29,551 nucleotides of DNA from Lunasporangiospora selenospora. Taxonomy: Eukaryota; Mortierellomycota; Mortierellomycetes; Mortierellales; Mortierellaceae. The stretch covers positions 311-29,861 of the forward strand of contig JAABOA010000056.1 of the NCBI GenBank assembly GCA_015680635.1, given 5' to 3'. Below the pieces are notes generated by a model that saw only the letters and a program-made list of their open reading frames with translations, had not been told where the DNA came from and did no database searches. Positions 2,782 to 29,383 of the stretch are shown one piece after another. A program made the position numbers and the translations under genes. How positions within the stretch are numbered: position 1 is the first letter of the stretch; every line of letters begins with the position of its first letter.

Positions 2782-5541
2782 CTAGCGGATTCGGGTCATC
2801 GAGGAAATGGTACGTCCACGAATAGTCGTTCCTCCATCAGCACCTCCAAACGGATCGTTCTCGTCGCGATCGTTCCTCCATCGAGAGGACGACCCAGGTC
2901 CTGAATAGGAGCCCGTTCTCGTGAGCGTCTTACTGCCCGTTCCGCTTCCTTTCTGGTCCTTCTTGCTCTTGGCCTCAAACAATTTCCAGAACTTGAGATT
3001 CTGGTCACTGGCCAAGGTGGCCACCGTCTGCCCATCAGGACTAAGAGACGTGTGGAGCACTCTCGAGTCGTGGGCAGGAATGTCAATCACCTTGCTCAGG
3101 GACGGGTATCCGTACACAGAGAGATTGTTGTCTGGATAGCCATGAGATGTCACAAACTCTCTATAGTCCTTGGACCAGATAATCGATGTCACTTGTGAAA
3201 CAGTGTTGACCGTGTTCAAACGTGCGCCCGTAGTCGAGTTCCAGAAATGAATTTGCTTGTCATATGTGCCACCGCCCGACGCAAGTAGATTATTCTGCCA
3301 AGGACACCATGCAAGCGCCTATTTAATCCATGCAGGTAACATCCATTAAGCATCAGATTAGTGAGTTGATATTTCTTACAGCCACCCAAAAGACCTTCCT
3401 GTCGATTTCTTACCTTGACAGCTGCCGTATGGTTCGTCTTGGTAAACTTTGGAGTGATACTTCGAGAGTCCCAAATATTGACCAAGTTATCATTTCCGCC
3501 ACTTGCAAGCTGCATTCCATCCTCACGCCAAGTCAGTCCACAGACTTCGTTACTATGATTAATCAATTCGGCCACTTTATGGTTCTGGATTCGGACATCG
3601 TGATTCCAGATACTTCCGTCTCGGCATCCTGAGCTCAGGATATGCTTGTCCCACGCCAAGACGCCGACTCTGGAGGCATGGCCCGACATGGATCGAACCT
3701 TGGTCTTGGATTCCACGTCCCAGATTTGTGTATCGCCATCAAACATACCAATGGCCAAATAGGCTCCATCGAATGCCCAAGAGACCGAAGCAACAGCATC
3801 CATGTTTCCTGTCAACGTGACCAAATTCTCTACTTGGCCTGACTCTGCGTTCCAGAGAAAAACTGACTTGTCCAGTCCAATGGCAAGGAGATTGGTGCAT
3901 GACCAGTCCAAGAGATTCAAGTAATAGTCGTCCAACAGTCCTGGCGCATCTAGAACCTTTTCGGGACTCGTGAGGATCGTGCGTTTGCGAATGAGATTTG
4001 AAGCTGAATTGGACCGCCCAAAGCTTGGGTGGCGACTGTAGATGCTGCGTGTCTGGTTCGAGTCGCTCGCTCGGAAGGGATTGGCCCCAACAGAAGGTGC
4101 CTCGACGTTGAAGGCAAGGATTCGGCTGTTGAGTGAAACCCCGCAAGCATGGGCAACTTGCTCCCTGTGGATGTATTCGCTGTCAATCACTTCGTCTTTG
4201 ATATTATAGCTCGGTAGTGGTAGAACAGAGTGGACCGTCGTTGTATCATCCATTGTAGCATGCGCGCTGTTGAGATTCATGGCACTCCTGTTGGGTATAA
4301 AGCGGTCGCCCTAATGCCAGTGAGTCATTGCAATTTTCCAAACGAAGATGACGATAAAGGCATATCGTGTTAGTTTCACAAGCAGAAAAAAAAAGAATGG
4401 CAGTATATAAAAGATAGAAGCAAAGTCAACAGAGGTGGAAAGACCCCACGATTCGGTCCCTTACCACACACAAGACTCTCTTGGCTTTTTTGGGCGACTT
4501 TGGGACAAAGTCGTTTTTGACCACGTCCAATTTAACAGAGATGCCGTGGAAACTCACGGCCCGGGAGAGACCAGGTTTGGAGGTAATTGAGGGTGACGAA
4601 GCCTGGGGCGTCGACTTTGTGTTGGCTGTCATGTTCAGAGCGTTGGCCTTTCCAGGACCAGCACTGTCGGCGCGAATGAGTGTACGAAGTGGGTGTTGCT
4701 TCAAAGGTGACGTTTTGTTGGGGTCGTTTGTAGAGACTTTCCCGGGAGTTGTAATGAGAGCCGATGTCGTAGAGGTCCTCTTGAAGAGGGGACGATTGCT
4801 GCTTAATAGCTCTAAATTACCAATCTTTTGCAATGTGGTGGCTGTCGTTGGCCTCTTGGGAGATCTCTGAAGCAAGGAGGCCACCCTATCCACATGTGGT
4901 GAATTCTGCAATCCTGCGGATGAAATTGGTCGCTTCCCGAGAACACTACTTGGAGTAGCAGTGGGAGGACTAGAGGTTGGGGTCGTGCTTTCCTTTACAC
5001 TCTCCAAGGGTTTGCTTGGTGTGGTCGGGATAGATGCCCTATCAGCGATATTGCCTTTGTTGGTTCTCGCTACAGTAGAATCCCGAAGCTGAAGAGAAGC
5101 CGTTGGGCCAGCGCTTGCGGTACGTGATAACAACAGAGTAGAGGACGAAGGTGCTGCAAGCTGGCGTGGGGTTGATAACAAACCGCTATTCGAGAATCGG
5201 TTCTTGGGAAAGAGAGACGCCCCGCCCAAGGACGCGCTAGCAGCAAAGCCTCCAACACGACCAGAACGGCTTCCCAGCTTCTGCTCGGCGCCCAATGCTG
5301 AGCCTCCTCTTCCAGTAGATCCACCTTCCTTAAATGACTTTAAGAGCATTTCATAGCGAGCATTAGCTCTTGACGTTGTCCCATTGTTGCTGGTGCCTGA
5401 GCTGCTGCTGCCGCTAGAAGCGCCACCACTTTCGCGGTTGGATGCTGGTAAAGAAGGTGTTGACAGAGTCGACGACATTGTGGAGGTGTTGCTAGATTTC
5501 GGTGGCGATGGCGAAACCAACGCGCCCGATGGCGAAGACAT
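2782..5541 (-). CDS. cdc20: APC/C activator Cdc20 (Slp1/Fizzy), WD40 protein
   Basis: Cdc20 brings substrates to the anaphase-promoting complex and is the target of the spindle checkpoint. There are three exons: 5541-4465, 4310-3414 and 3318-2782. The introns are 154 and 95 nt, both phase 0, and the product is 836 residues. Exon 2 opens exactly on the C-box GDRFIPNRS (residues 360-368). A Mad2-interaction-like motif RILAFNVEAP is at about 422-431. The seven-blade WD40 domain starts near VLDAPGLLDDYYLNLLDWS and includes LASGGNDNLVNIWDSRS and DIPAHDSRVLHTSLSPDG. The last two residues are Ile-Arg, the IR tail that docks on the APC/C. Similarity to fission yeast Slp1 (for example KFTKTNH, and TRIR at the end) points to Cdc20 rather than Cdh1. 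Exon 1 is unusually long, Ser/Thr/Pro-rich, and has about a dozen S/T-P sites, several with CDK-like basic residues. A run of 19 A bases lies directly before the start codon. Confidence 0.95.
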
Positions 5542-5936
5542 TTTTTTTTTTTTTTTTTTTGGAAGGAGAGGGTGTTTTTTGTTGGACTCGAGTTGGCCGA
5601 GACCGTCCCTGGTTTGTCGACTCCTGTGTATAAAAAAGAGAAAGAGAAAGGGCTGCTGATGTACGCGTTTCCGTTGCCTTTCTAGATCAAGCTACGCTCG
5701 CCAATGTATATGCTGGTGATGTCTTGATTCAGCTGGTCCGCCCTGAAGAGGAAAAGGTGAAATTCTTTTTATGGATGCCTGGCGGAGATGAGATGGAGTG
5801 CAACCACACCTGAACTTTACCTGTGCAACTTTGAATAGCTGTGGCTTGGTAAAGTGCCTCTAAAACTAAGGCATTCCACCATTTGACAGAAAGCCTTGCA
5901 CTTGTTCCTACACTTCAAACTGCTTGCTCATCCAAG
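5542..5936. promoter_or_regulatory. Divergent promoter region Cdc20 / TFB5
   Basis: These 395 bp lie between two divergent starts and must hold both promoters. Directly upstream of the Cdc20 ATG (minus strand) is an uninterrupted A19 tract (5542-5560). GTATAAAAAA at about 5628-5637 on the + strand resembles a TATA element but is 300 bp from the TFB5 start. No coding frame is supported. Confidence 0.6.
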
Positions 5937-6749: not shown

Positions 6750-8557
6750 TTATCGAAGTCGAGAAATTAGAATCTCCTCCTCATATCGTCCATTGATAGA
6801 GTCGACAATGCTCTTTCCATACTCTTTCTCCAGATCTGCATCTTCCGGCAATGCTAAATGTCGCTCCATCTCTGCCTGAGTCAGAACCACGGCATTCAGT
6901 AGACTGAGGGGCTCTGAACGGATCCAACGGCAAACACAAATCCGATCCATGCTCTGAGAAATGCCACTACGACCGCGGAACATCTCCTCTACCACATATC
7001 CGATATCACGGCGATCGAGCGGCATAGTGATACTCCTCGACTCATCCGAGTTCTGGCTATCATCAGCTCCGGTGGGTGCCATGGACTCTTCTCGAAGTTT
7101 CAGATCCCGATGAAGACGTTGATAGAGTACATCGCGATATCTGACCAGCAAAGGGTCCATTGGCCATCCTGCAATCTTGCAGATAATATGTGTTGCCATG
7201 GACATACCAAACATTGCTGGAATAGGCACCAATGTTGGCAGAACGGTAGTACCAGATGTAATTATCGGCAATGGATTGTATGCGAGTCCTTTTGGCTTCT
7301 CTTCTGATCCTGGCAGCATGCTTGATGCAGACTTGGTTGGCTTCTCGGTCGAAAACACAATCTCAATGCCAATGTCGACTCCCAACCGCTTCATCCTGCG
7401 ACGCACTGCCCTTGCCAACGGATCCTCTTTTTTCCCCAGACGCATAAGAAGAGAGGGGAGGGGCAATAAAAAGAAATATAATGTCGAATTAGGAAACATC
7501 CAAACACTATGCACACAATGTCTTTGTGCGACTCTAAGAAGCAGAAGGACAACCGTTGCTCCTTACCGATCGTTTCGGAGATATCGCTGATCTGAACACG
7601 AGAGGGGTCGGCTTTGACGCCTGCATCCATGGCACTTATCACTGGGATCTTGTTTTCGTAGCAGTACTTGAGCAATGCAAGTTTGCTCGTAAGGTCGCCA
7701 GTTGCATCCACGACATAATCCGGTGATCCTACAAGAAGTCATTGTATTCAACGCAACAATATTCATGTCAGTTGAGTGAGGGTGGTCTACGACTGGTAGC
7801 GGAGCAAATAGAGCAGAAAAAATAATAACCCCTGTAAGGATGTACCTGCAAGTAATGCACCAACCGTATCTTCCCGAAGCAGCTCGATGCGAACATCGAC
7901 ATCCACCCAAGGAACGACTTTCCTAAAGGTCCTCTTTAAAGCAATCGCCTTTGGTGTGCCAACATCACGTCTGGTTGCTGTCGAGTGCTGGTGGAGGTTT
8001 GAAAGACTGATTGTACCATAATCGATCATTCGGATCCGGCCAACGCCACTCTTCACGAGCATGGTGGCTGCCCAGCTGCCAATGTCGCCTAAGATTAACA
8101 ACGAGAGTAGCGTGTGAGTATCGCTTGCCATGCTGAGGGGACCCTTCATTATAGGTCTCCCTTTCCTGCTTCTTAACGGGCACACCTACTACTAACCTGC
8201 ACCCACCACAATCACAAAGGACTTGCGAAGCTTGGCAACGCCATCCTCTCCAAGGAATGCAATGTTTCTTGCCAGCTGCTCCTGAACCAACTCTTCATCA
8301 AACAGTCCTGTAGCCGGTGCATTGGATCCCGTGTCCTGCTCCTTTGGAGAGTCACCGAGGAATTGTTGACTCGGAGCAGACGAAAGACCCATAGACCCCT
8401 CTGACCTCTTTTTTGAGTGTCTTGCATGGTGTCTCCGTTCCGCTCCTTGATAAGAGAGAATAGCGGTTGCTGTGGCCGCAGAGGCGACAGCCGCCACGAG
8501 GATCATTTGGGTCGATTGACTTGTCCCTGTGGACAGCTTTTCCATTAGAGGCCACAT
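6750..8557 (-). CDS. TCD1: tRNA threonylcarbamoyladenosine dehydratase (Tcd1/Tcd2, E1-like)
   Basis: This is a ThiF/E1-superfamily enzyme that uses ATP to cyclise t6A37 of tRNA to ct6A. The yeast homologues are mitochondrial outer-membrane proteins. There are four exons: 8557-8197, 8088-7846, 7728-7567 and 7426-6750. The introns are 108, 117 and 140 nt, all phase 1, and the product is 480 residues. A hydrophobic helix at about residues 17-36, followed by Arg/His/Lys residues, fits an N-terminal membrane anchor. The nucleotide-binding loop is GAGDIGS (119-125). Next come MIDYGTISLSNLHQHS and DVGTPKA, the Asp and Ser-Asn-Leu elements of E1-like ATP sites, then PDYVVDATGD and the SDISETIEDPLARAVRRRM block typical of the TcdA/Tcd group. 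The last acceptor (AAAAAAG before 7426) is what joins this block correctly. Tcd1 and Tcd2 paralogues cannot be separated from this sequence. An alternative start at 8542 would remove five residues. Confidence 0.92.
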
Positions 8558-9168
8558 GCTGGGAATGAGACTTGGGTAGATTTGAATGAGTTGTTGGCCC
8601 TCAAAGTCAATGATAAAATAGAGATGTGGCTTTCCTCCACACGCGCTTTGGACTTTTAAGACTTTCGATTGAGCAGGTAGACTATGCCCTCTCTAATATA
8701 TAGATCGCCCATTCTCTAATTGGGACGTTGAAAAAAATAACCTGACTGCCACCCTGCAACTGACGCCCAGGCAAACCCGTACAGACAGATAACATGCTCG
8801 CATCTGGCATGGCTAGTGTTGGCTAACCGGCTTGTGTGAAGTTCGCTGGCCAAACGGCTACGGATAGCTCTTCTCCATTCTCACAAATCAGGTCTTCCGG
8901 GACGCTCTTCTTCCCGATCTGTCTTCTTCCACCTTTAAAGACTGGGGATTTGTAGCCGGAAATGCATCCTTACTGTTAGCTCGGGTGGTTTATTAATCGA
9001 ATCTTTCATTGGGAACTCAATGAGGAGAGCAGCCCAAACGAGATGTTGCAAAGCTCTTTGTCTCAAAAATCTCCAGTAAAAAGGGTTACGGACAAAATAA
9101 GAAAATCAGAGAGGTTTTATTACTGTACAATCGAGTTTTGGAGCTCGGTTTATAGAACGACAGTCCGT
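8558..9168. promoter_or_regulatory. Intergenic: Tcd promoter and malate dehydrogenase 3' flank
   Basis: These 611 bp lie between two minus-strand genes. On the minus strand CTATATATTA (about 8695-8704) is a TATA-like element about 140 bp upstream of the Tcd start. The part next to 9168 is the 3' UTR of malate dehydrogenase. No coding exon, tRNA or other RNA gene was recognised. Confidence 0.55.
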
Positions 9169-11237
9169 TTACTGGGGTGCAACCTCGGGCTTGGTCGCAA
9201 CCTCGGGCTTGGTCACAGCCTCGGGCTCAGTAATGAACTTTGTACCCTTCTCAATGTTCGCCTTGAGCTCCGTGTAGGCCTCATCAAGCAAACCCTGCTC
9301 GTGATCCGAGACTGCAGGCAATGGAAGAATCTTGGCAACACCCTCGGGACCGAACTCGACATCTTGAGCAAAGTAGTCAAGGCCAGTCTTTGCATGGAAG
9401 GCCTTAGTGCTCTCAGCATCGGCCAAGAGATTCACATAGGTAGACTCGACAATACCAGTCTTGCCATTCACTGAAGCCTCGAGGACTACGTTGGTGAAAC
9501 GAGCACCAGCGTAGGCCATAGAAAGAGTAGCCGAACCTGCACCAGCCTTGGCCTTCACGACTTCGTCACCACCGTACTGGATGCGATGAGTCAACGCCTT
9601 GACCTGCTCCTCCGTGAACTTTTGACCAGGGATCTGAGAGAGCAAAGGAACAATGGTAACTCCAGAGTGACCGCCAACGACTGTGACACGAGTGGACTTG
9701 GGGTTGATGTTGCTGTCAACCTCCGAGATGAAGCGAGAGGCGCGAACAACATCCAAGGTACTAACACCAAAGACCCTATTCAAGTTGAAGAGCATAGTAT
9801 TGTTAGAAATGTAATAGAGATTGCCATCTAGTGTGACAACATCTCTTTCTCTCTCTCTCTCTCTCTCTCAAACACATTCTATCTCGACGCCGTCGTTGTC
9901 AATTTGTTGTGTCGAGAAAATAACGGAAGGGGTAGAGCGAATTATCCACTTTCTGGCTCGCCTCTACCTGGGGCATGGTATTGAATTATTTGCATGACCC
10001 CAGTTTTTGCAGTTTTTGTGCCTCCGGGGAAGAGGGGGAGGAGGGGAAGAAGGATGTGAGCCTTGACCCCGCAGACTCCAAGGGTATAGTCATCTGAAAG
10101 GTGAACCCAATCACTCCACACAGAGCTTTAGAATCCTGTTGTAAAAGAGCTGTGATAACAGGCAAAAAAAATTGGGTGCGCGTATTACGAGTGTGGGAAT
10201 AAGGCACAGATATGACTCAACCTTGGTTATTTTGCCCGCGTGGAAGCACGTTGTAGCTCACAGCCCCTCCTCTTTACCGCCCCTTGGGAAGAGAATATAT
10301 GAGGGGAAGAGAGGAAAGATAAAAAAAAAAAAAAAGATGATAGACAAGACTTACTTCTTGGGGTTATAGACATTGTACTTCTTGAGCACCTCGCTGACGA
10401 TTGGCACAGTCGAGTTGACGGGGTTGGAGATGACAAGGACGAATGCATCGGGGCAGTTCCTGGCCACACCCTCAGCCAAGTCACGAATGATTCCTGCGTT
10501 GATCTTTTGGTGCAGAGCGAATAAAGAAAACCTTCTGTCAGGAACAATTATGTCTCTGCAAAATCCCACTCGGAAAATTGATGTTGACCCTTCTCTTGCA
10601 TATTGGTAAAAAAAAGTGCTGTACCTTGAAAAGATCGTCACGAGTCATGCCTGGCTTGCGGGGAACACCAGCTGGGATGACGACGGTATGAGCATCCTTG
10701 AGGGCTGCATCCATTTCGTCCTTGCCGTAACCAGTCACCGTGGAGCGGGTGTTAATGTGCGAGAGATCTGCAGCGACTCCAGGGGCGTTGACGATATCAA
10801 ACAGAGCCAAATCGGTGATCAGGTCTGACTGCTTCAAGAGCAACGACAAGGGCTGACCGATTCCACCGGCAGCACCGCAGACAGTAACTGTATTATTATT
10901 TTCGACATTGTGTTAGTAGAGTATAATACCAGGTTTCGATCAATCCAAGCTAATGTTTTGTGCGTCACCAATACCTTTGATATTATCGGGAGCAGGGGAC
11001 TATGAAAAAGTCATCCATGATGGTAATATTTGAATAGTCAAGGAGAGGCTAGATGAGTAAACTCGGTCATCTCATGGAGGTCGGCAAACACCATTCCCAT
11101 TCATGCGTCTCCACATTTCCTGGAGATGACGAGCCGGACATTGAAAACCCGAATAGCAAAGGTGACAGACAGAGAAGCTAAGCGCCGATCAAAAAAAGGG
11201 GAGGGGAGGGCGAAATTGACTGTTGATCCCTTACCAT
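9169..11237 (-). CDS. MDH1: NAD-dependent malate dehydrogenase, no targeting peptide (cytosolic type)
   Basis: The enzyme interconverts malate and oxaloacetate with NAD. There are five exons: 11237-11235 (ATG only), 10999-10975 (25 nt), 10887-10625, 10503-10355 and 9775-9169. The introns are 235, 87, 121 and 579 nt and the product is 348 residues. The protein begins [20 protein letters not shown], where the Rossmann loop GAAGGIG covers residues 14-20. Substrate-loop arginines are in [17 protein letters not shown] (R86, R92). [11 protein letters not shown] follows, then LDVVR with D155 and R158, and the catalytic histidine H183 is in [12 protein letters not shown]. No mitochondrial presequence is encoded by this first exon, so a cytosolic enzyme is inferred. 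The C-terminus carries a Thr-Lys-Pro-Glu-Val tandem tail. The ATG-only first exon rests on GATG|GTAAGG at 11235/11234 and on phase agreement. Confidence 0.92.
9179..9231 (-). repeat. 18-bp tandem repeat encoding the malate dehydrogenase C-terminal tail
   Basis: Two perfect copies of GCAACCTCGGGCTTGGTC (plus-strand reading, 9179-9196 and 9197-9214) are followed by a degenerate third copy up to about 9231. On the coding strand they give repeated Ala/Val-Thr-Lys-Pro-Glu-Val. The unit length is a multiple of three, so expansion or contraction keeps the frame. Confidence 0.9.
9849..9869. repeat. (CT)n microsatellite in the last malate dehydrogenase intron
   Basis: A short CT run lies near the 3' end of the 579-nt intron 10354-9776. 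On the gene strand it is a GA run. Confidence 0.9.
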
Positions 11238-12622: not shown

Positions 12623-14264
<1,642 letters not shown>

Positions 14265-15301
14265 CTATCGTCGCCTGGTGATGACACTCAGGCCGTCAAA
14301 GATGGGCAAAAGAACTACCTCCACGCGAGAGTCATTCTTCACATGGCGGTTAAAAGTGTCCAGCTTGTCTCCTAGATTTTGAGGAATTCTTCTGTCGTTC
14401 GAGGAGGACCCCTCGGCCACGCTTTTGCTCTTGGAAGCGGCTGCATCCTGCGATGCTCTGGCCGTGGGAGCGTTCAGGACAGTGCCGTAGAATAAAGTGT
14501 TATCGGCAAAGATAAAGCCATCCTTGCTGAGCAAGTTACTCTCAAGAATGGTATTGTAATAATTGATGTATCCTCCCTTGTCGGCATCTACCAAAAGTTG
14601 ACGAATTAGCGTGGGTGGGTGGGTTAGTCTAGCCTCTGCCATTTCTGCAAGATCGCCAGGTATAGTCAAGCAATTCCAGCTCTTGAACTGGTCTACCTAC
14701 CTAAGAAAATCACGTCAAATTGGATGTCTCTCTTGATCAATACTTGAAGGCTCGATGCGGCATCGCCTTCAAGGAGCTCAATCTTTGCGTATTTATCGCC
14801 AGAAGTGTATCCCTCACGCTCAAACGTCTCTCGAGAGAGACGCGCTGCTTTTGGATCCTTTTCACAGGTGTACAGTGTGGCACCTGGCTCAAGCCCATCC
14901 GCCATGGCCATTGCACTATATCCCATAAAGCACCCAAGTTCGAGCACTTTGTGGGGACGAATCATACGCATCAAAAGCTGCATTGTCTTTCCTTGCATGT
15001 CTGGCACAGACAAATGCGTGCCTTCAGGGTAGGCGGCAACTGTCGCCTCGCGAAGTCGGACAAACTTCCCGGGAAGGGGTGTTGACAGTGATTCGGCATA
15101 GGCGAGGATCGGATGATTGTCATCTTTCAAGACCGCAGACTTGATAGAGGGCGTGCTTCCTGAGGTGTGAAAGGACAGCACTGAGACTGCAGCCTTGGAA
15201 GGAAGGAAGCCCCGAGAGGTTGCTGGAGTGAGTCGCTGAAGAGCTGAGCATGTTGATGCGCGAGTGAATGAGCTTCTGGATAGATGGGTAAAAAACACCA
15301 T
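14265..15301 (-). CDS. SAM-dependent O-methyltransferase (caffeoyl-CoA/catechol OMT family, COMTD1-like)
   Basis: This is a class I, metal-dependent O-methyltransferase of the CCoAOMT fold. Exons are 15301-14701 and 14587-14265 (intron 113 nt, phase 1), giving 307 residues. The first 35 or so residues are rich in Ser, Arg and Thr with few acidic residues, which suggests a mitochondrial presequence as in animal COMTD1. The SAM-binding motif is VLELGCFMGYSAMAMAD (about 119-135), the acidic residue after strand 2 is in YTCEKD, and the metal and substrate site is FDVIFLDADK (D201, D203) with FADNTLFYG further on. The protein ends DGLSVITRRR, like the DGL tail of the family. Between ADNTLFYG and the end there is an Ala/Ser-rich insertion of about 30 residues. 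The physiological substrate cannot be read from the sequence. Confidence 0.9.
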
Positions 15302-15623
15302 GTCTCTTTGCTGTGAAATGAAATTTTAGAAATAGATTGGAATGATGGAGAAGGGAGGAAGTGGGGAGAAAGGAAATGGATAGGTGGGTAAGATAGGGGG
15401 TGTCTCCCGCTCAATATGTTTATCTTTAAATATCGATTCATGCGCATTGACTGAGGGGTAAGGAGGAAATCGTTGGCATAGTTGTCCCCACATTGGAACT
15501 CTTCGCTCTGCTACTGGTGCTTTTCTCTTGCACAATGCTAGGGACACACACCAGTGATGGTGGCACGCACTACTTTAGCCTAAAAGGCCCATTTATTTCT
15601 TCGCGAGTATCACAAGCGTATAT
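15302..15623. promoter_or_regulatory. Intergenic: O-methyltransferase promoter and eL28 3' flank
   Basis: 322 bp. On the minus strand ATATTTAAA at about 15425-15433 is a weak TATA-like element about 125 bp upstream of the methyltransferase start, followed by a pyrimidine-rich leader. No coding exon is supported. Confidence 0.5.
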
Positions 15624-19143: not shown

Positions 19144-20014
19144 CACAGAGTGTAACTTGGGATGAGAGTGGACAGGGGTGACAGGAGAGAAAGAGAATAG
19201 GCTATAATAGTAATGTCCAGCAAAGATGACACAGACATCCAAGGAAGAATGGAGACATTAGTTAGTAGATCCGGGGTAGAGAGAGATGGCATTCAAGCGA
19301 TGAAGGCGAAGCTGATCATGTCTTTGCATGGGGATTACGCGACAGACAAGAGATTCAACTACGTTTTTTATTTTTTTTTTATTTTTTACCTTGTCAGTCG
19401 GTGAGTCGGTGAGCAATGGAGTGGCAGATGATGTTGCAGACAGCCCGTCAAATGATTGCAATGGCTTCAGCGGGAGCAAGTTTGTTCGTGTGTCGTAGTA
19501 TGATAAAGATGTGTTGGAGAGACTGGTTGGAGACTGATAAACACGAAGGGTTGATGAGCGCAGGTTATGGGGACGATGAGGAGAGGAAGAAGGGATAGAT
19601 GTTGCATCAATTGGTGCCGATGCAACATTCACCCTGGCCACGTACGCTCCTTCATTATTCCAGCCAGGCAGCTGGATGGCCAGGACCCACGTACGACTGT
19701 CTCGTCAATTTTTTGTTTTCTTTTGCTCCGTCAGAGCTGACAATGCCTGAGTCTGCAACAAAGAGAGCTCTTTGTCCCTCCCCAACCAAACTTGACTTGC
19801 CTCTTTTTTTTTCTCTCTTTCTCTTTCACTTCAGGAAGCGACCAACCATTTCCTTTTTGCTGCCACCCTCTTTCCCTAGACACCGAGCTTAGGATCACGG
19901 AAATCACCACCGGAACCAACTGAACGCGAATCGTTAGTCAAGTACCGACATTTGTACCAGCTGCTGCATCAAATTGTCTGCCCTTAGTTTACAAAAACTC
20001 TCTCTGTCACCATC
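19144..20014. promoter_or_regulatory. Divergent promoter region Caf1 / eIF2B beta, with a possible upstream Caf1 exon
   Basis: 871 bp between divergent starts. On the minus strand an open frame at 19641-19390 (84 codons, Ser/Thr/Pro-rich) ends in GACAAG|GTAAAA and could splice to CCCAAG| at 19156 in frame with Caf1. A T-rich and A-rich tract occurs at about 19365-19388. Pyrimidine-rich DNA at about 19800-19830 may belong to the eIF2B promoter. Confidence 0.5.
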
Positions 20015-21545
20015 ATGAGCAAGAATAATGAACTTGTCGACGATCTTGTCGCGAAACTGAAGCGCCGCCAACTTGTCGGCTCCTCGACTGTGTCACAGGC
20101 GACACTTAAACTACTGATCGTTGTCATCTCAAGGAGCAATTGGACGACGGCAAACCAGCTCTTGACCCTGGTCAAGTCTGTTGGCCAGCGCTTGATCCAG
20201 GCCAACCCTACAGAGCTCGCTGTCGGCAATATTATCCGCCGTGTCCTCCATGTGATTCGTGAAGAGTTCCGCGAGGCCGATTCGAATGCCTCCTCGCACA
20301 GAAACAAGAGCACAGAGTCTAGCCACCCAACATCGTTGACAACCTCTTCTTCCATGTACAACCTTCTCGGCGAAACTGGATCGACAGTCAACGATAATGT
20401 TCAATACCCTTCAAGTTTGAGGAGTAACATTATCCAGGAGATCCGTGAAATCAAGGACGAACTGGAGAACATTTATGACAATATTAAGAACCAGGCGTTA
20501 CTCCAAATCCACTCAAAGTGAGTCATCGAGGGAGAAAAAAAATCCTCAACATTGGGTCGGTCGTACTACCGCCCTGCACACACTGCCAGTATACTAATTG
20601 ACGTGATGCACATCTACTCTGGGACACACTGATCTTAGTGAAATCATTATGACAATTGGGCGATCAAAGACTGTAGAAGAGTTCTTGAAGATGGCTGCTG
20701 CAAAGAGAAAGTTCCAAGTCCTGGTTGCAGAGACGGCACCTTCGTAAGAGACAGTCCGAGTTGTTGAGAATGTTGACATTTAACTTAGTAATCAAGTACT
20801 GATATGGAATCTCTATCCACGGGAAATTTGCATGGACAGATACTCTGGGCAAGAAATGGCACTTGAACTGTCAAAGGCTGGCATTGAGACGACAGTCATC
20901 CCAGACTCTGCTGTGTTTGCTGTGATGTCGCGTGTAAACAAAGTCATTCTTGGAACCCATGCTGGTAAGGGATCGGTCTTGAATATGAGACAATATGTGG
21001 TCTAGTAGGTATACTTTAGAAAGCCTTATATCCAACAAGAACTCACCTAATCGGCTCTCCTGACATGATCCAAAAAAAATAGTGTTGGCTAATGGAGGGC
21101 TAGTCGCAATTTCAGGAACACACATGATGGCAGCGGCGGCTAAGCACCATTCGATCCCAGTCGTAGTTTGCACTGGACTCTACAAGCTTTCTCCTCTATA
21201 CCCTTATGACGAGGACAGCTTCAATGTGATTTTCAACCCGGATTCAGTTCTTGGATTTGAGGAAGGCGACTTGGTGGAGAAAGTTACTGTGACAAACCCT
21301 TACTACGATTATGTGTCCCCAGACTTTGTCAACCTGTTTATCACCAATCAAGGCGGCCACCCACCATCATACTTGTATCGCCTCATGTATGTATATCTCT
21401 TCATGCTTTAACCTGATGTGGCTACATGGAAAGGTTTACTGTATTACGTATTTATTTATTCCTAACACGCTCGTTATTTTCTCTACTGTCCATGTTGAAT
21501 AGTGTTGAGAACTATGATCCAAACGATCACACATTCGATCTTTAG
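20015..21545 (+). CDS. GCD7: Translation initiation factor eIF2B subunit beta (GCD7/EIF2B2)
   Basis: This is a regulatory subunit of the eIF2B guanine nucleotide exchange factor that recycles eIF2 and senses eIF2-alpha phosphorylation. Exons are 20015-20517, 20639-20743, 20840-20964, 21083-21386 and 21503-21545. The introns are 121, 96, 118 and 116 nt and the product is 359 residues, against 351 in human. The N-terminal helical part contains [17 protein letters not shown]. The Rossmann-like C-terminal part contains [51 protein letters not shown], and the ending [17 protein letters not shown] followed by [17 protein letters not shown]. Ser/Thr-rich residues at about 90-125 are a loop insertion. 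The beta rather than alpha or delta assignment rests on the N-terminal helical block and the YDPNDH-type end. Confidence 0.95.
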
Positions 21546-22846
21546 AGACCCGACAGTGCAGCGTCAAAGCAATGTAACTTTTTTCCCCTCCTGCTTCCAT
21601 TTCTCTCTTTTTTTTTTTCTTTTAGCACCCCATAATGAAGATAGTTCCATCCTCTCCGAAGCATTGGAGTGCTCAGTGGTTGCATGATGTAGGACAGGGC
21701 CAATGTATTGTCAGGGTCATGGAGAGCAAACTTTTTTGTTATTGAGGAACAACTCGACAATGTTTGGTTTATTGGACTAGAGCATTGACAGCAACTGGAC
21801 AGATGAGGAGTGGCATGAAACAGCAAAATGCTTATGGTTCTTCAGTCCGCAGGGGTATTTGACTCACTTTTTTCTTACTCATTCTCTTGGGAATCGCAAA
21901 ATAAGCAGCATTGCCCAGATCTGAGGGCGCGGTAGAGCGATAGAGATGGAGAGCAGAAACAGGGGTCATCCGAGAAAACACAGGTGCATCGTTAAAAGAT
22001 GACTAGACTGCGGTGGTGTTCTTGTTTACCAAGCTCTTAGTCTAAAGGTGGAGGAGGCCTGGGAGAGTAGACAAAGAGGAGGCGCGGATGAGCGGGTGAG
22101 GACGATCCTCGTGGCAGGGGGAACGCGCCTTTTTCTCTCTTTTTTTATTTTTTTTGTGCTGGGAAGAGAGGGAGGCACAAAGGCAGGGCGCATATGGCAC
22201 AAGAGACAGACGGGACGAGACGGCCATTGCCTGGTATAAATATCGAGCAACATGATAAATTTAGGCAATGGGGAGGACGTGTGATATTTAAACGTAGTGT
22301 TGGACAGAGAGGAGAGAAGAAGTACAAGGTGGGCGGGGCGTGGCGAATACTTTGCCGATGCAGCCATGGGTGCCTTCTTCGCATCGATAAAGCCGCCGCG
22401 GCCGCAGCGCACGCAATGCGCTTCTGGGGGGCACACATATGCATGGGACCTCACCTCTTCGGCGGCCCTTGCATCGAACGGAGCCATGGGCCACACCTCT
22501 CTTCCACCCTCCAGATGAGGATATGGATGGTCTGGATCTCTTCTCTCTCTTTATTTCCTTTGGTCTTCGACCCCTCTGTCTGTCTCTGCCTTTCTCTCTT
22601 TTTCTCTCCTCAATCTCTCTCTCTCGACAATCGCTCACATCTGCTTCCACGCTTCCTTTTGCTCTTGCATCCACTTTTTCTCTCGCTATCTACTTCTCTT
22701 ACTCCTCTTTCGTTGGTCTCTTCCTCCACTCCAACCCTTTGGCCCTGGTACTCACTCCGCTCTTCCACCATCCATTGCCCTGTCCGCACGGTCATCCTCG
22801 TCTTCGTCCTCCCCCTCTCGTCAGGGCCGACCAGCATAGCATATCC
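21546..22846. promoter_or_regulatory. Intergenic: eIF2B beta 3' flank and kelch-kinase promoter/leader
   Basis: 1301 bp. The left part is the eIF2B 3' UTR, with a T tract at about 21606-21622. Further right are a TATA-like TATAAATA (22235-22242), a GC-rich box GTGGGCGGGGCGTGGCG at about 22329-22345, and a long CT-rich stretch (about 22535-22760) typical of fungal core promoters or leaders. Two + strand frames stay open through this CT-rich DNA because it lacks stop codons. I treat them as non-coding. Confidence 0.5.
22235..22242 (+). promoter_or_regulatory. TATA-like element upstream of the kelch-kinase gene
   Basis: TATAAATA on the + strand lies about 600 bp before the chosen start codon. 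The distance implies a long leader, a 5' UTR intron, or a different start. Confidence 0.35.
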
Positions 22847-25800
22847 ATGCCAGGCCCCTCCACCCACCCTTCCTGTGCCTGTGCACACCTCTACTCAACA
22901 GGTGCACGACCATCAGATCGATCACCACGATTCCCACTCACCACCACCATCCACTCATCTCTCATTCCGTCACGGTCATGTCCCTCCAGTCATCGCTCCA
23001 CATTCATCCATCACCAATCAGCCTTGTCTACCTCGCACCACTCCCGACCCCCAACCAAAGATCGCGCCCCAGTGGGACGAACACCAAAAACCTCTACCAA
23101 CTACAGTCGTCGCTGTCAGTTTCACTCTAAAGGCGGTAGCAGCAACAGCGACGACTCCAGCGACTACTCTAACGACAACGACAACGACAACGACAACAAC
23201 GACAACGATGACGACCATTTCTTTGACAAAGACCTCGGTCGCAGTCCTATCAACTGGCCCAACAAGGCTTGTCTGACAAGCCTCTCCACCTTCTCCACTT
23301 CCTCCACCTCCACCGCCCCCTGTTCTACTTCGACCTTTTCAAAAGCTCACAGGAGATCATGGATCCTCGCCTGTGCCACACTCCTGGCTGCGGCTACACT
23401 GCCGATCTCCTCAAATGCCGCAGGCACACAGCCGACCTGGCGCGCGTTCCACGGCGCGGCTATTATCGACACGTCCATGGTTGTCTTTGGTGGCTCGACA
23501 GATCCGACGCGGAGCCCTTATAGCTCCGCTGTCCCAGGTTCAAATGACGTCTGGGTCTGGAGCACCACCCTCCGACAATGGTCGCAGCCCACGATCCAGT
23601 TCCCGGGCTCGGCTTCAGGGGCTCCAGCACCACAAAAGTTCCTTTCATCCGTCTCGTTGCAGTCCCAGGGCAAGATGTTGTCCTTAGTGAGCAATAACTC
23701 GGGTACTGGTCTGGCGAACAATCTCCTCATGCTTGACACATACTTTTGGGTCTGGTCCGTCCCCAACTCACGTAAGCAGCGTTGTTGTTGTTTTTGGGTT
23801 TTCTTTCTATTTTTCCTACTTATTTTGCTCAATGCTTGTTCTTTGTTGTTATTATTGTTATTCTGTGTCCGAACGACAAAGGGACCTCAAGTGAGATGCT
23901 TTGTCTGGAGCCAATATTTACTCCTTCTCATCCCCACAGGATGGCCGTCTACTGTTCCTTGTCTAGAAATACTAACGCCCTTGCTCCTTCTCTTCTTCCC
24001 TTTCTGCTCCCTTCTTTCCCTTTGTGCGGGGGGTCTCTGGATGATCCCTCTACATTACAATCGAACGACAACTCGCCCATAATGACTGTCGGGACAATTA
24101 ACCCACCGGCGTGGCGGGACTCCTTGTTGGAACTCTACCCCACCCTTCCTTCTTAACACCACACGGTGCAACCGGATCCACAGCGAATGCTGCTGTGGCT
24201 CCACAGATGCGTCTTGGCGCAGCTATCGGTGTCTCAGACTCGGTGCTGTTTATTCATGGTGGCGTGGGTGTTGACTCGAAAGGCCTAGCAACATCGGCGG
24301 TCCTAAATGACCTTACCAAGCTGGTAAGAAAAACAAAAAAGTGAATGAACGGTGTTGTATCTGAAAGGGGCAAAGCTGGGGCGATAAAGGCGACAATAAT
24401 GGGGAGTTGGGACACACGCGCGAGTGTCGGGAAAAAAAATAGAGAAAGAAGGTCAGGATCTTCGGCGCGATTCCATGGAATTGGCCAGTCTTGCTTTCCC
24501 CCTTGGGGCCTTCTATCCCCCTTCTCTTTCTTCTCTCTTCCGACGAACAACCATCGGGCCACATTCGCATCCCGCTTTTCTTTTCGCACACACGACAAAG
24601 ATCTATATTTAAAAAGTGTGTGTGTGTTTGGGGGTACTGTGAGGTTGGTGTCTTGGTTGTTGAACAAATTGTGTTTACACATACACACACACGCGTGCCT
24701 GTGTGTGGATGCGTGTGGGCACGGAGTATTGGTCAACGCCCGCTCTCTCTCTCTCTCTCTCTCTCTATTTCTTTCTTTCCTTCTCTTCTCTACTCTACCC
24801 TTGAAAGTTTTTGTCTGTCTTTGGCAGACTTGAAGCAGGACAGATCCAGCTTGGGTAGCAGATCGGATGACGGATATAGTTGTCCAAGGGTGCACAGAAG
24901 AGGCGATCTATTTTTGAGCGCGTGCTGCCTTTTGTTGCTCGCCGTGTGCAATAGGCGAAAATGAACTGACGCTCGTATTCTTTTGCCCTGCGGGCCTGTG
25001 CAACACTATGACGAACGCCCGGGCATTCTATAGGATGAGAGCACCTTCCAGTGGACATCGATCGCAAACGGACCCACGCTCATGTTCCACACTATGTGCA
25101 AGCTAACAGGGTTGAACCGGATGGTGATCTTTGGCGGCTCCGACCAGAACACACAATCCTACAACACAGTCCATTCTTTCGACCTCACCCTTGAGACATG
25201 GAGCCTGGCCGTTCCTGTAAGTCCAGGCGTTGGTGGAAGTATCCCCTCGGCTAGAAAGGGTCATACAGCCATCTGCTTCAATAACACAATGATTGTCTAC
25301 GGTAAGTAGCTGTCCAGACCATTGACCATCTTTTGCATTGTTGTTTTTGTTGTTTTCTCCCCATTTCTACCACTGCCGTCGCCCCGTGTGTGCGCTTAGC
25401 CTCACTCGTCACCTCTCCCCGGCATATGCATTACGGAGAGAAGAGGAAGGGGGCACTGGAGATGTTATGCCGGGCTTGCATTTGTCTTGCATCGTCTCTC
25501 TTTCTCTCGTTGTTGTTCCTTACCTCCTATTATTACTGAGGGAGAGAAATGTGGTGTGTGTTGGGTGTGTGTTTGTGTTTCTATGCGTCTTTTGACCCCT
25601 AGTTCATTTCGGGGAGGTGTGGATTCCTTGATCCAATCTCGTGACCTGACCTTAACTTTCATTCTCTTGTATCCACTAGGTGGTGGCCCAGAGGGACCAC
25701 TTGACGACGATGTCTGGGTCTTGGATGCGTCCAAGACTCCATGGGTTTGGAACAGGATGACTACCAACAAGCAGATGGGTCCAGGACCAAGGACAGGCCA

Positions 25801-28800
25801 CTCTGCGCTTCTCAACGGCACCAACATGCTCGTCTGGGGCGGATACGGAACCCCAATCCAGGGCGACACAAATATTTATATCCTCGACACAAAGGAGTGG
25901 CAATGGTCTTCGTCCAAGGAGACTCCAGTTACACCTGCCTTACCAGTTCCCGATACACCCGCCCCTGCCCCGGAGAGAAAAAACAACCTCCCGCTCACCA
26001 TCGGCGTCATCAGCGGAAGTGTAGCCTTGATCGTGGCATTCGTAGGATTTCTGTTACTTCGCCGCCGTTCCGCAAGGAGAAATGCACTGCATGAAAAGAG
26101 TATCCAGGGTGCAGAAGCTGGTTCAAATACAAGCACCCATCTCGCGGAAAGAGAGCAACAACTTTCTCGAGATATCATCATGGACGATAAACTGGTTTAT
26201 TACAACAATGGCGATAGAGACTCGGGATCATCCCTTGGAAAACGGTCCCAAGCTGCTCTTCGAAGGTCTACACCTAGTTCCGGGTACCCAATGCAATCGA
26301 TCGCAGCGCTGACACGGACAACGCCGGACCAAAGTTCTAGTCGAGCAGAATCGAGTCAGTCTTCGGGACGATACCCTCATCAGTATTACAACTCTTCGCG
26401 AAAAGAAACGGATTCAAATAGGATGACCGCTGCTGCTGCTGCAAGAGTCGGGTCCATTTCATCGGATCCTTTTTATCCTTCTTACTTGGCAGAAGACGAC
26501 GAGGAAGATGCAGATCGCTGGACTTTTGCCTCGTCTTTATCGTTTGATCAACGGGATAGCCACAACAGCATGCCTACATTGCGCTATATACCCACGCGTG
26601 TCCACGGTCCAGGAAGCGCTCAGAGATCTTTGGGCCACTCAACGGGAAGTCTTGGGGGAGGGAGTTCACAACGAATGCAGATGGTGATCCACCCTCATGG
26701 TGGAACGAGGGGCTCTAGACGGGATCCTAGCAATATGTCAACCTTTTCCAACAATGGGTCTTCAATTGGTCCGGGGTCTATTTCTTTAACAACAGCGACT
26801 TCAACAGAACTCTTGAACCGAGACGGCTCGACTAGTCCACGAGACAACACACTATTTAATTCAGTCAGTCCTCTAGACAGGGTGACAATCATGTGCGCAG
26901 GAATTGATCCGAATAGAGCTAGCGAGGATGATGCACTCCAACTCGGATATCAGAGTCGGTCGATCCAGCTTCATAAGCGCAAAAGCGATCCTCAGGATTA
27001 CTCGCAGCATCCTGCCAAGGGGCTCTCAGATCTCAGTCGAAAGGACACGACCTCGACCTCGACCACTAAATCTTCCACGAGCTATACCACTCTGGAAAAC
27101 CCAGCATTGATGACCCTGGTTCAAAATTTACCGGCTCGATACAAACTCTCGAAATCACCTTGTCCCATACATGGAGAGACGAACGACATTCTCTTTGCCA
27201 TTGACTCTGACACACAACAGCCCATTGTCGTAAAGTCTTTTGCAAAGAAGGAAGCATGGGAAAGAGAGTGTAGGATGCTTCGAAGGCTTCGTGGACCCTA
27301 TGTCGTTGAAATGAAGCATGTGGCGACCCTTGTCCTGTCCGAAACAGATGATCCGAACAAACCCGCCAAGCTGCGACTGACAATTCTCGAGAGACTAGAC
27401 GAGACATTGGCCCAAATGCTAAAGAATGCGCGCAAGGCCAAGAAGGTGGCTCTTCAGGAACAAGCACAGCCGAATGAAAATCTCAACCTAGCAGGAGCGG
27501 GACTTTTCCGTTCAGGACCAGCACTGGATGTGGGCTACATCAAGGACATTGCCAAAGGAGTCTTGAGATGTCTGATATGGTGTCACTCCAAGAGGATTGT
27601 CTATTGTGATTTAAAGCCTTCGAATGTGATGCATAATCGGGATGATCCTCGCCCACAGTGGAAGCTGATCGACCTCGAGTCTTCTCGCGTGGCAAACGAG
27701 GAATGTATCGGCATCGGGACTGTGCGATATTGCCCTCCTGAGGTGGCACGAGGCACAACGGTCGACAAGCAAGCTTCGTCAGGAGTGACAGCCAGCTATA
27801 GTATTGACCTCTGGGCGTTTGGCTGTCTGCTTTATGTAAGTCGAGACCAAATCTGTTTCTTTATTATTATTTTTTTCATGACCTGATCTTGCGATTGTGC
27901 CTTGAATCTAACACCACTTTTTTTAAATTATTATAAATAGGAACTCTTCGCAACAAGACCGCTGTTCCCACTTTCGCTTTCCGACGATACTGTGCTTCAT
28001 TTCCTCGCCCACCCCTCCACTGATACGCCATCCCTGGCCAATGGCCTGAGATGGAATGGGTCGCGGGAGCTGGAGATTCCTCACTTTGAGGAGGCCGTTC
28101 CGGATGAGCATGCAAGAACGTTGATCCGCATGCTTCTTCATCCAGATCCTCTTCGCCGAGCAACACTGAACCAGATTTTGGTAGGTCGACATTTTCTTGC
28201 CCAATTTATCCCTTGACGGTCCCAGTGAGACATGAAAGCAGGATGTGCCTGTAAAATATGACACAAACTAACCCTCTCTTTTCTTTTGAAACACTTCGAA
28301 TTCCCTTCGTAGGCCTCGCAGTACCTCAGTGGATCTGGAGAGTCAAAAGTAGTCCCGCAGAGGTCACCGCAGACTTCACCCATTCGTGGCAATGCACCCC
28401 AGGAGTCGCAGCCGAACAACCGTCTACCCTCATCTCCTCAGTACTCACACCCTCTTCGCTCACCTCAGACTATACCCACGGACACACTTCTGAAGGAGCA
28501 TCCATGTCTGTTGATCCCTCTGCCCAACCTAGCCGAGACTCAATGGTTGGATCCCTCGACATGGACTTTGACCTCTTTTAAGATTTATTATCTTTGCCAA
28601 CATCCCGCAGCAAATCTGGACTCTAGTATTTCTAGGCTATCCGTGGATATTCAGAGTCATATGTCGAATAGCTCGGGTCAGAATCATGGTCATGATCATG
28701 ATCCGTCAACTGTTGGGCATTTTGTGGAACAACCCGGCTATGTGATCGAGCGTCCTCAAGAGATGTTTAAACAATTGAGCCCGCTGCTGTTGCTTTCATT

Positions 28801-29383
28801 GGACCTTCAAATCTCGAGAATGATGGATCAGGCACAATGCCCACCTGGATTTGAGGCTCTGGTCGAATTTGAATACGATGGAGAGAGGGATTTGGGGACT
28901 CTTGGCTTGAATGCCGTTTCTGAAGAGACGTTGAGCTCGGATCACAAGGTGGAGCTTGACGTTAGCGGCAAGGAAGAGTCCCACTCGGCAAATGCTGCGG
29001 GCGGAGGCATTGTACGTGGGTTTGCAGGTTATTGTCAATGGATCCGGAGTCGAATTTATCAGCTTGGATCTAAAGAGAACATTGACCAATCTATCCGGGA
29101 CCTTGAAGGTACTGTCAAGGGAGAAAAAATGGAGGAATGATGCAGAAAGGCTCTTTTTTGGTCTCTCGATCTATTTGCCGGCAGTTGATGCGTCTGTACT
29201 GACTTTACACCGCATTTCGTATTCTTTTTCTGCTGTTGTTGTTGAATAGCGTTCACAAAATCGGTCGATCCCGGTTATAATGCGACTGGGCTACAGTTGT
29301 TCGTTGGAGGCTCGAACCAGCGGATCCTGATTTGTTCTACACATGCTGGATTACCAGAGTATTCAAATTGGAAGCGTGTATAA
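22847..29383 (+). CDS. Kelch-propeller single-pass transmembrane protein kinase (receptor-kinase architecture)
   Basis: Seven exons: 22847-23771, 24184-24323, 25034-25301, 25680-27835, 27941-28180, 28313-29108 and 29250-29383, 1552 residues. A hydrophobic segment SWILACATLLAAATLPISSNA (about 171-192) looks like a signal sequence. A six-blade kelch-type propeller follows (about 196-530), with Gly-Gly strands near 213, 332, 387, 444 and 497 and one degenerate blade near 270. One transmembrane helix lies at 548-571, followed by RRRSARRN, which places the C-terminal side in the cytosol. A Ser-rich linker runs to about 930. The kinase domain (about 932-1243) has beta-3 Lys K963 (VVKSF), a helix-C Glu in WEREC, catalytic YCDLKPSN (D1088), IDLE in place of DFG (D1109), PPE in place of APE, and SIDLWAFGCLLY. 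The last 309 residues match nothing I recognise. The start codon is uncertain: 171 Ser/Pro- and Asn/Asp-rich residues before a signal sequence would be odd. Ligand and pathway are unknown. Confidence 0.8.
23170..23206 (+). repeat. AAC-GAC tandem repeat encoding Asn/Asp
   Basis: Alternating AAC and GAC triplets in the first kelch-kinase exon encode an Asn-Asp run followed by Asp-rich residues. It is a low-complexity acidic stretch, if this part is translated at all. Confidence 0.8.
24324..25033 (+). other. 710-nt intron of the kelch-kinase gene with several microsatellites
   Basis: The donor is CTG|GTAAGA and the acceptor CTATAG|GATGAG, phase 0. The splice joins Asn-Asp-Leu-Thr-Lys-Leu to Asp-Glu-Ser-Thr-Phe-Gln-Trp, a continuous kelch blade, so no exon is missing. 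The intron holds a short GT run (about 24616-24628), a CA/TG-rich segment able to fold back (about 24675-24720) and a CT run at 24743-24766. Confidence 0.75.
24743..24766. repeat. (CT)n microsatellite in a kelch-kinase intron
   Basis: An uninterrupted CT dinucleotide run of about 12 units, intronic. Confidence 0.9.

What the first reader, a model, noticed from the sequence alone, without database searches (positions are those of the whole stretch)
22847..29383. Fungal receptor-kinase architecture: extracellular kelch propeller, one TM helix, cytosolic kinase
The frame-consistent splice model joins a signal-like segment, six kelch-type blades, one transmembrane helix with a positive-inside flank, a Ser-rich linker and a kinase domain in one polypeptide. 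Kelch proteins with a TM (attractin-like) and kinases are each known. Receptor-type kinases with this order are rare in fungi and would imply direct signalling from a surface carbohydrate or protein ligand. The link across the TM is strong, because kelch blades 5-6, the TM, the linker and most of the kinase are all in the single 2156-nt exon 4 (25680-27835).
Basis: partly seen in the sequence, partly recalled or inferred. Interest (0 to 1): 0.85.

Follow-up and report, generated by a model that had tools for sequence, protein, structure and literature searches.

The report
Kelch receptor kinase of basal fungi
This soil-fungus gene appears to make a cell-surface sensor, with a kelch propeller outside, one membrane helix and a protein kinase inside; the same design recurs in two phyla of early-branching fungi, a kingdom from which plant-like receptor kinases have been reported missing.

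Summary
In Lunasporangiospora selenospora (NCBI BGW38_008222, partial) one gene encodes a kelch propeller, a single transmembrane helix, a long disordered linker and a kinase. Exon 4 (25680-27835) is one open frame joining propeller, helix and most of the kinase. The same order occurs in many genera of Mortierellomycota and Mucoromycota: 103 of 138 database relatives show at least 120 residues of propeller, a helix and a kinase. Among 139 aligned rows (window included, rows with a letter counted) the catalytic K, E, D, N and D are nearly invariant; the HRD arginine is cysteine in 133 of 133 ('non-RD', as in the plant immune receptor EFR), and the DFG glycine is glutamate in 133 of 133. The helix carries GxxxG in 131 of 135 rows, and its basic flank lies on the kinase side in 135 of 135. 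By sequence the nearest solved kinases are CMGC (CDK12/13, p38). Databases name it 'F-box only protein 42' or 'CDK12/13'. Ten paper searches listed no description. Best reading: a conserved type I receptor serine/threonine kinase. Ligand, location, activity and transcript are untested; the translation start is unsettled.

The parts
22847..23771 (+). exon 1: N-terminal extension of doubtful coding status, signal-like segment, first part of the propeller
   Evidence: open frame, GT donor at 23772; start codon unsettled; NCBI P0001 covers it only from 23675
23351..23422 (+). signal-like hydrophobic segment (residues 169-192) directly before the propeller
   Evidence: hydropathy 1.55 over 19 residues; same place as N-terminal hydrophobic segments of relatives such as P0053, P0035, P0037, P0040
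24184..24323 (+). exon 2 (propeller)
   Evidence: AG/GT borders, phase kept; matches NCBI P0001
25034..25301 (+). exon 3 (propeller)
   Evidence: AG/GT borders, phase kept; matches P0001
25680..27835 (+). exon 4: last part of the propeller, transmembrane helix, linker, most of the kinase in one frame
   Evidence: 718 codons without stop; matches P0001
25988..26059 (+). transmembrane helix (residues 548-571) with GxxxG at 553-557, followed by RRR
   Evidence: hydropathy 2.53; GxxxG in 131 of 135 rows against 48.4 expected by shuffling; more K+R on the kinase side in 135 of 135 rows
26060..27127 (+). Ser-rich disordered linker (residues 572-927)
   Evidence: pLDDT mostly under 50 in the model of a relative; median identity 46% to 19 Mortierellomycota rows
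26498..26593 (+). conserved linker motifs DEEDADRWTFASSLSF and RYIP
   Evidence: conserved in the Mortierellomycota rows, recognisable in Jimgerdemannia, Umbelopsis, Phycomyces and Apophysomyces rows, absent or unrecognisable in others such as P0088, P0107, P0109
26861..26881 (+). conserved linker motif SVSPLDR
   Evidence: core VSPLD at 70% or more of 107 long rows
27128..27835 (+). kinase domain, part in exon 4 (Lys963 27233-27235; Cys1087 replacing HRD Arg 27605-27607; Asp1088 27608-27610; Asp1109 27671-27673; Glu1111 replacing DFG Gly 27677-27679)
   Evidence: PF00069 E 2.8e-27; residue counts
27941..28180 (+). exon 5: rest of the kinase C-lobe
   Evidence: AG/GT borders; matches P0001
28313..29108 (+). 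exon 6: end of kinase, spacer, most of the C-terminal domain
   Evidence: AG/GT borders; matches P0001
29250..29383 (+). exon 7: end of the C-terminal domain, stop TAA 29381-29383
   Evidence: AG border, frame closes; matches P0001, which stops one residue earlier
28478..29380 (+). C-terminal domain (about residues 1299-1552, split by intron 29109-29249): PCL..PLP, LCQH, GH.V, Y..W and C..H signature
   Evidence: found in 12 of 154 fetched proteins, P0001 included; invariant columns in 9 aligned rows; no Pfam family passes; partly confident in a model

Best explanation
The gene encodes a type I single-pass receptor serine/threonine kinase of a family conserved in Mortierellomycota and Mucoromycota. 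Shown by sequence and prediction: a kelch propeller, one transmembrane helix with a basic flank on the kinase side, a long disordered linker with conserved short motifs, and a kinase fold with all catalytic side chains. Inferred: a signal sequence sends the propeller to the outside; it binds a conserved surface ligand, perhaps a wall glycan or wall protein; the GxxxG helix pairs two receptors, bringing two kinases together. As a non-RD kinase it may not need activation-loop phosphorylation, so it would signal through proximity, through linker phosphorylation or through partners docked on the linker motifs. In part of the Mortierellomycota an extra C-terminal domain would recruit a partner.
Against: No transcript, localisation, activity or ligand data. 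The start codon is unsettled and 168 residues precede the signal-like segment. The glycine-rich loop keeps one glycine (Gly943) and the DFG glycine is glutamate, so activity is not assured. N-glycosylation sites are not clearly enriched in the ectodomain: observed over shuffled 1.09 in the propeller, 1.15 in the linker, 0.78 in the kinase. 35 of 138 relatives lack one of the three parts by my thresholds; some are visibly truncated records, the rest were not examined one by one. The shuffles for GxxxG do not allow for relatedness.
Confidence: 0.77

Rival explanations
1. The same membrane topology, but the protein stays in the endomembrane system and senses lumenal conditions, as Ire1 or PERK do, rather than sitting at the cell surface.
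For: Topology data cannot tell ER lumen from outside; the N-terminal extension before the signal-like segment is odd for a secreted protein.
Against: No Ire1-type RNase or lumenal family in Pfam; named relatives on hand come from two fungal phyla only, whereas Ire1 is general in eukaryotes (recalled).
Confidence: 0.17
2. The kinase is a pseudokinase or nearly inactive and works as a scaffold or allosteric partner of another kinase, as was argued for the plant receptor EFR.
For: Non-RD and DFG-to-D[FLM]E in 133 of 133 rows; glycine loop reduced to one glycine. EFR, also Cys for Arg, signals without its own catalysis (PMC8463890, passages).
Against: Lys, Glu, Asp, Asn and Asp of catalysis are nearly invariant, which a dead kinase would not need; a few rows do lack the catalytic Asp (3 of 134).
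Confidence: 0.2
3. A gene-model artefact that fuses a kelch gene and a kinase gene.
For: No transcript was seen; NCBI's own model is partial.
Against: Single exon 4 joins the parts; the same order in 103 of 138 relatives; trees with the same main split.
Confidence: 0.02
4. A cytosolic kelch adaptor of the FBXO42/KLHDC kind, or a CDK12/13, as the database names say.
For: NCBI names; kelch matches to KLHDC2/3 and FBXO42; kinase profile nearest CDK12.
Against: No F-box in the Pfam scan; a hydrophobic helix at that place in 134 of 138 relatives; the HRD Arg, present in CDK12, is replaced.
Confidence: 0.02

Closest known systems
Plant non-RD receptor kinases (EFR, FLS2, XA21)
   Same: Single-pass topology, N-terminal ectodomain, cytosolic Ser/Thr kinase with Cys for the HRD Arg (EFR C848 from PMC8463890, passages; FLS2 and XA21 recalled)
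   Different: Kelch propeller instead of leucine-rich repeats; kinase nearest CMGC by sequence; DFG Gly to Glu
CMGC kinases CDK12/CDK13 and p38/ERK
   Same: Best profile matches to solved kinases (E 3e-23); PPE motif and the stretch before it align with CDK12 VITLWYRPPE
   Different: Membrane-anchored under a propeller; both the HRD Arg and the Arg before PPE are Cys
LZTR1, KLHDC2/3, KEAP1, FBXO42 and attractin kelch propellers
   Different: LZTR1, KLHDC2/3, KEAP1 and FBXO42 are intracellular adaptors; attractin is extracellular but has no kinase (both recalled)
Kelch-TM proteins without kinase in the same genome (L018, L019)
   Same: Kelch frames, then a glycine-rich helix, then a basic flank
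   Different: No kinase in the open frames of the stretches read (about 3.3-3.4 kb each)
Entamoeba kinases with kelch or with a transmembrane helix
   Same: Kelch or membrane anchoring joined to kinases is reported (PMC2939887, passages)
   Different: Kelch is reported there in tyrosine kinases, transmembrane helices in other kinases; a kelch-TM-kinase order is not stated in those passages

Membership tests
type I single-pass receptor Ser/Thr kinase | folded ectodomain, one transmembrane helix, kinase domain, in that order | tested here: met
type I single-pass receptor Ser/Thr kinase | kinase side faces the cytosol (positive-inside) | tested here: met
   135 of 135 rows have more K+R on the kinase side
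type I single-pass receptor Ser/Thr kinase | N-terminal signal sequence | tested here: inconclusive
   hydrophobic segment in the right place here and N-terminal in several relatives, but the start codon is unsettled here; no signal-peptide predictor was at hand
type I single-pass receptor Ser/Thr kinase | plasma-membrane location, ligand binding, ligand-dependent kinase activity | not testable with these tools
   needs experiment
receptor tyrosine kinase (a UniRef name for P0077) | tyrosine-kinase catalytic loop (DLAARN or DLRAAN, recalled) | tested here: not met
   rows matching the motif read DLKP[STN]N; Lys1090 in 133 of 134
plant RLK/Pelle receptor kinases | kinase of the TKL/RLK-Pelle group | tested here: inconclusive
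   the 60 listed profile matches to solved kinases are CDK or MAP kinases, but only 60 of 1772 were shown; VIA rows of several groups are tied
plant RLK/Pelle receptor kinases | leucine-rich, LysM or lectin ectodomain | tested here: not met
   kelch families only for the ectodomain in Pfam
CMGC kinases | closest sequence relatives among solved kinases are CMGC | tested here: met
   best 60 of 785 and of 1772 shown
CMGC kinases | Arg before APE/PPE in the activation segment (CMGC arginine, recalled) | tested here: not met
   Cys at that place: RYCPPE against CDK12 WYRPPE
F-box only protein 42 | F-box domain | tested here: not met
   no F-box among 14 Pfam families at E up to 1
attractin | CUB, EGF, C-lectin and PSI domains beside the kelch propeller (recalled) | tested here: not met
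   none among the 14 Pfam families
Ire1/PERK | lumenal Ire1/PERK domain, or kinase followed by the KEN RNase | tested here: not met
   not among the Pfam families; no Pfam family passes in the C-terminal domain

The most novel reading that the evidence does not exclude
A separate origin of receptor kinases in fungi. A kelch-TM surface protein captured a CMGC-like kinase in a common ancestor of Mortierellomycota and Mucoromycota; the kinase lost the RD arginine as plant immune receptors did. The result is a standing surface sensor of walls or bacteria, in a branch of fungi part of which (Mucoromycotina) has few NLR-like proteins.
Probability: 0.25. Interest if true: 0.9.

Novelty: new variant of a known kind. 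Interest (0 to 1): 0.72.

Why it matters
Fungi were reported to lack LRR-kinase and LysM-kinase receptors (PMC2939053, passages), and Mucoromycotina to have few NLR-like proteins while still reacting to bacteria (PMC9119436, passages). A conserved receptor kinase in these fungi and their Mortierellomycota neighbours gives a concrete candidate for surface sensing that can be deleted, localised and screened for ligands. It also corrects misleading names ('F-box only protein 42', 'CDK12/13').

Tried and rejected
Artefact of two fused genes: rejected on exon 4, on the relatives and on the trees.

Sequon enrichment as proof of an outside propeller: tried, not discriminating.

C-terminal domain: no Pfam match that passes (best E 0.049) and no second copy in the own genome. 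It was folded only together with the kinase; the fold searches on that model were filled by kinases, so its fold family is untested. A resemblance to C-terminal domains of other Mortierella proteins is recalled only and was not tested.

Alternative 5-prime splicing to bring a start codon near the signal segment: acceptors exist, but no donor of the searched patterns was found in 22300-23200. Left open.

Trees: they agree in the main split and in the window's own group of ten rows (support 86 and 99), but the second Mortierellomycota group holds together (99) only in the kinase tree, and the placing of several Mucoromycota rows differs. Both were quick trees of 59 chosen rows of 139.

Taxonomic limit: three protein searches showed the family in named rows of Mortierellomycota and Mucoromycota only, plus unnamed rows; I looked up four species and assign the other genera from memory. 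75 of 195 hits were not listed, and searches scored only about 8000 candidates each, so absence from Glomeromycotina, Dikarya or others is not shown.

Literature: ten searches (one search was on non-RD kinases) gave no listing that describes a kelch receptor kinase of fungi. Six of them held more papers than were listed. Open-access library only; a paper on Phycomyces and Mucor signalling genes and one on non-RD kinases that I wanted to check were not held.

Full report
What is there. The window is G000:C49:311-29861. A database protein from a contig of that length, named for Lunasporangiospora selenospora (BGW38_008222, partial), is 100% identical to residues 277-1551 of my splice model. NCBI places the species in Mortierellomycota. 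The model has seven exons, 22847?-23771, 24184-24323, 25034-25301, 25680-27835, 27941-28180, 28313-29108 and 29250-29383, with GT/AG at the internal borders and a closed frame of 1552 aa. The start is not settled: ATG 22847 is in frame but leaves 168 mostly low-complexity residues before the signal-like segment, and the first upstream in-frame stop is at 22388. Several relatives show such a segment directly before the propeller and near the N terminus (P0053, P0035, P0037, P0040 and others), while many database models start downstream of it.

Family. One search gave 56 hits, of which 53 are this family (52 Mortierella-side rows, one of them unnamed, and one Lichtheimia). One search, with the Lichtheimia protein, gave 97 hits, of which 85 are this family, fragments included, reaching Mucor, Rhizopus, Phycomyces, Absidia, Umbelopsis and Jimgerdemannia; NCBI puts Lichtheimia, Umbelopsis and Jimgerdemannia in three classes of Mucoromycota. 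One search, with a kinase region alone, gave 195 hits; the 120 listed look like this family and 75 were not shown. From the 154 proteins fetched I dropped P0001 (same as the window) and 15 other kelch-only or kinase-only rows, leaving 138 relatives plus the window, 139 rows. Of the 138, 103 have at least 120 aa of propeller, a helix and a kinase; 80 have a near-complete propeller. Kinase and kelch trees of 59 chosen rows both split into 20 Mortierellomycota and 39 Mucoromycota rows at full support, and both hold the window's own group of ten rows (support 86 and 99); the second Mortierellomycota group is united only in the kinase tree, and some Mucoromycota rows sit differently. Distances correlate at 0.89 overall, 0.69 and 0.58 within the sides. 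So the two parts have largely travelled together (inference). Median identity of the window protein to 19 Mortierellomycota rows is 71% (kelch), 46% (linker) and 81% (kinase), and to 39 Mucoromycota rows 37%, 20% and 48%. Species names carry between one and five rows (two in Mortierella sp. AM989 and AD094, three in Dichotomocladium elegans, five in Mortierella alpina, which may be several strains). A slowly changing ectodomain in few copies argues for a conserved ligand rather than a diversifying immune repertoire (inference).

The kinase. Among 139 rows, those with a letter: Lys963 138 of 138, Glu974 138 of 138, Asp1088 131 of 134, Asn1093 134 of 136, Asp1109 133 of 133. The HRD Arg is Cys in 133 of 133 and the DFG Gly is Glu in 133 of 133. 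[quoted passage not shown] By profile the 60 listed solved kinases are CDK or MAP kinases, led by CDK12, and CDK12's VITLWYRPPE aligns with the family's VITPRYCPPE, but the arginine of that motif is lost. The catalytic loop DLKPSN or DLKPTN speaks for Ser/Thr, against the UniRef name 'receptor protein-tyrosine kinase' of P0077.

Membrane. The kinase side has more K+R in 135 of 135 rows, mean 7.0 against 1.0. GxxxG occurs in the helix of 131 of 135 rows, 48.4 expected from shuffling each helix segment; relatedness is not controlled in that count. The linker holds conserved short motifs: an acidic WTFASSLSF block, RYIP and SPLD, which some Mucoromycota rows lack. Sequon counts did not help to place the propeller.

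C-terminal domain. It is found in 12 of the 154 fetched proteins, P0001 included, all on the Mortierellomycota side, with invariant PCL..PLP, LCQH and C..H positions in 9 aligned rows. No Pfam family passes. In the held genome it was found only here.

Relatives without kinase. Of 18 kelch matches in the own genome, I looked at eight loci outside the window; two hold kelch frames followed by a helix and a basic flank but no kinase in the stretch read (L018, L019), a plausible source or partner of the receptor kinase (inference). The held genome is 8.2 Mb in 475 contigs, so copy number here may be incomplete; only one copy of the receptor kinase was found in it.

What is known. Reports on fungal receptors state the absence of LRR-kinase and LysM-kinase receptors (PMC2939053, passages) and few NLR-like proteins in Mucoromycotina (PMC9119436, passages). 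Kelch in Entamoeba tyrosine kinases, and transmembrane helices in other Entamoeba kinases, are reported (PMC2939887, passages). Ten paper searches listed no description of this family.

Verdict. Observation confirmed; interpretation supported. Added here: conservation of the whole design in two phyla, the non-RD and D-x-E kinase, its CMGC-like sequence and the extra C-terminal domain. Open: expression, location, activity, ligand and the exact N terminus.

Noticed in passing
window 28478-29380: Uncharacterised C-terminal domain after the kinase, in 12 of 154 fetched proteins, all Mortierellomycota-side, no Pfam family.
   Followed up: partly
L018 (G000:C214) and L019 (G000:C371): Kelch-TM proteins with glycine-rich helices and basic flanks, no kinase in the stretch read, in the same genome.
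   Followed up: partly
window 19988-21411: Upstream neighbour on the same strand: initiation factor 2B family (PF01008), a housekeeping gene unrelated to the finding.
   Followed up: no
window 274-1971: Xanthine/uracil permease family gene (PF00860).
   Followed up: no
window 3216-4310, 9169-9867, 12623-13243, 14693-15325, minus strand: CDC20/Fizzy WD40 protein, malate/lactate dehydrogenase C-terminal domain, ubiquitin-ribosomal L40e fusion and an O-methyltransferase. Frames 4426-5691, 6750-7562 and 8192-8692 gave no Pfam family.
   Followed up: no
database proteins P0002-P0052: Many are named 'F-box only protein 42', a few 'Negative regulator of mitotic exit' or 'Cyclin-dependent kinase 12/13'.
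   Followed up: yes
P0105 (Rhizopus stolonifer): The Pfam list of this family member also holds HMG-box domains, possibly a fused gene model.
   Followed up: no
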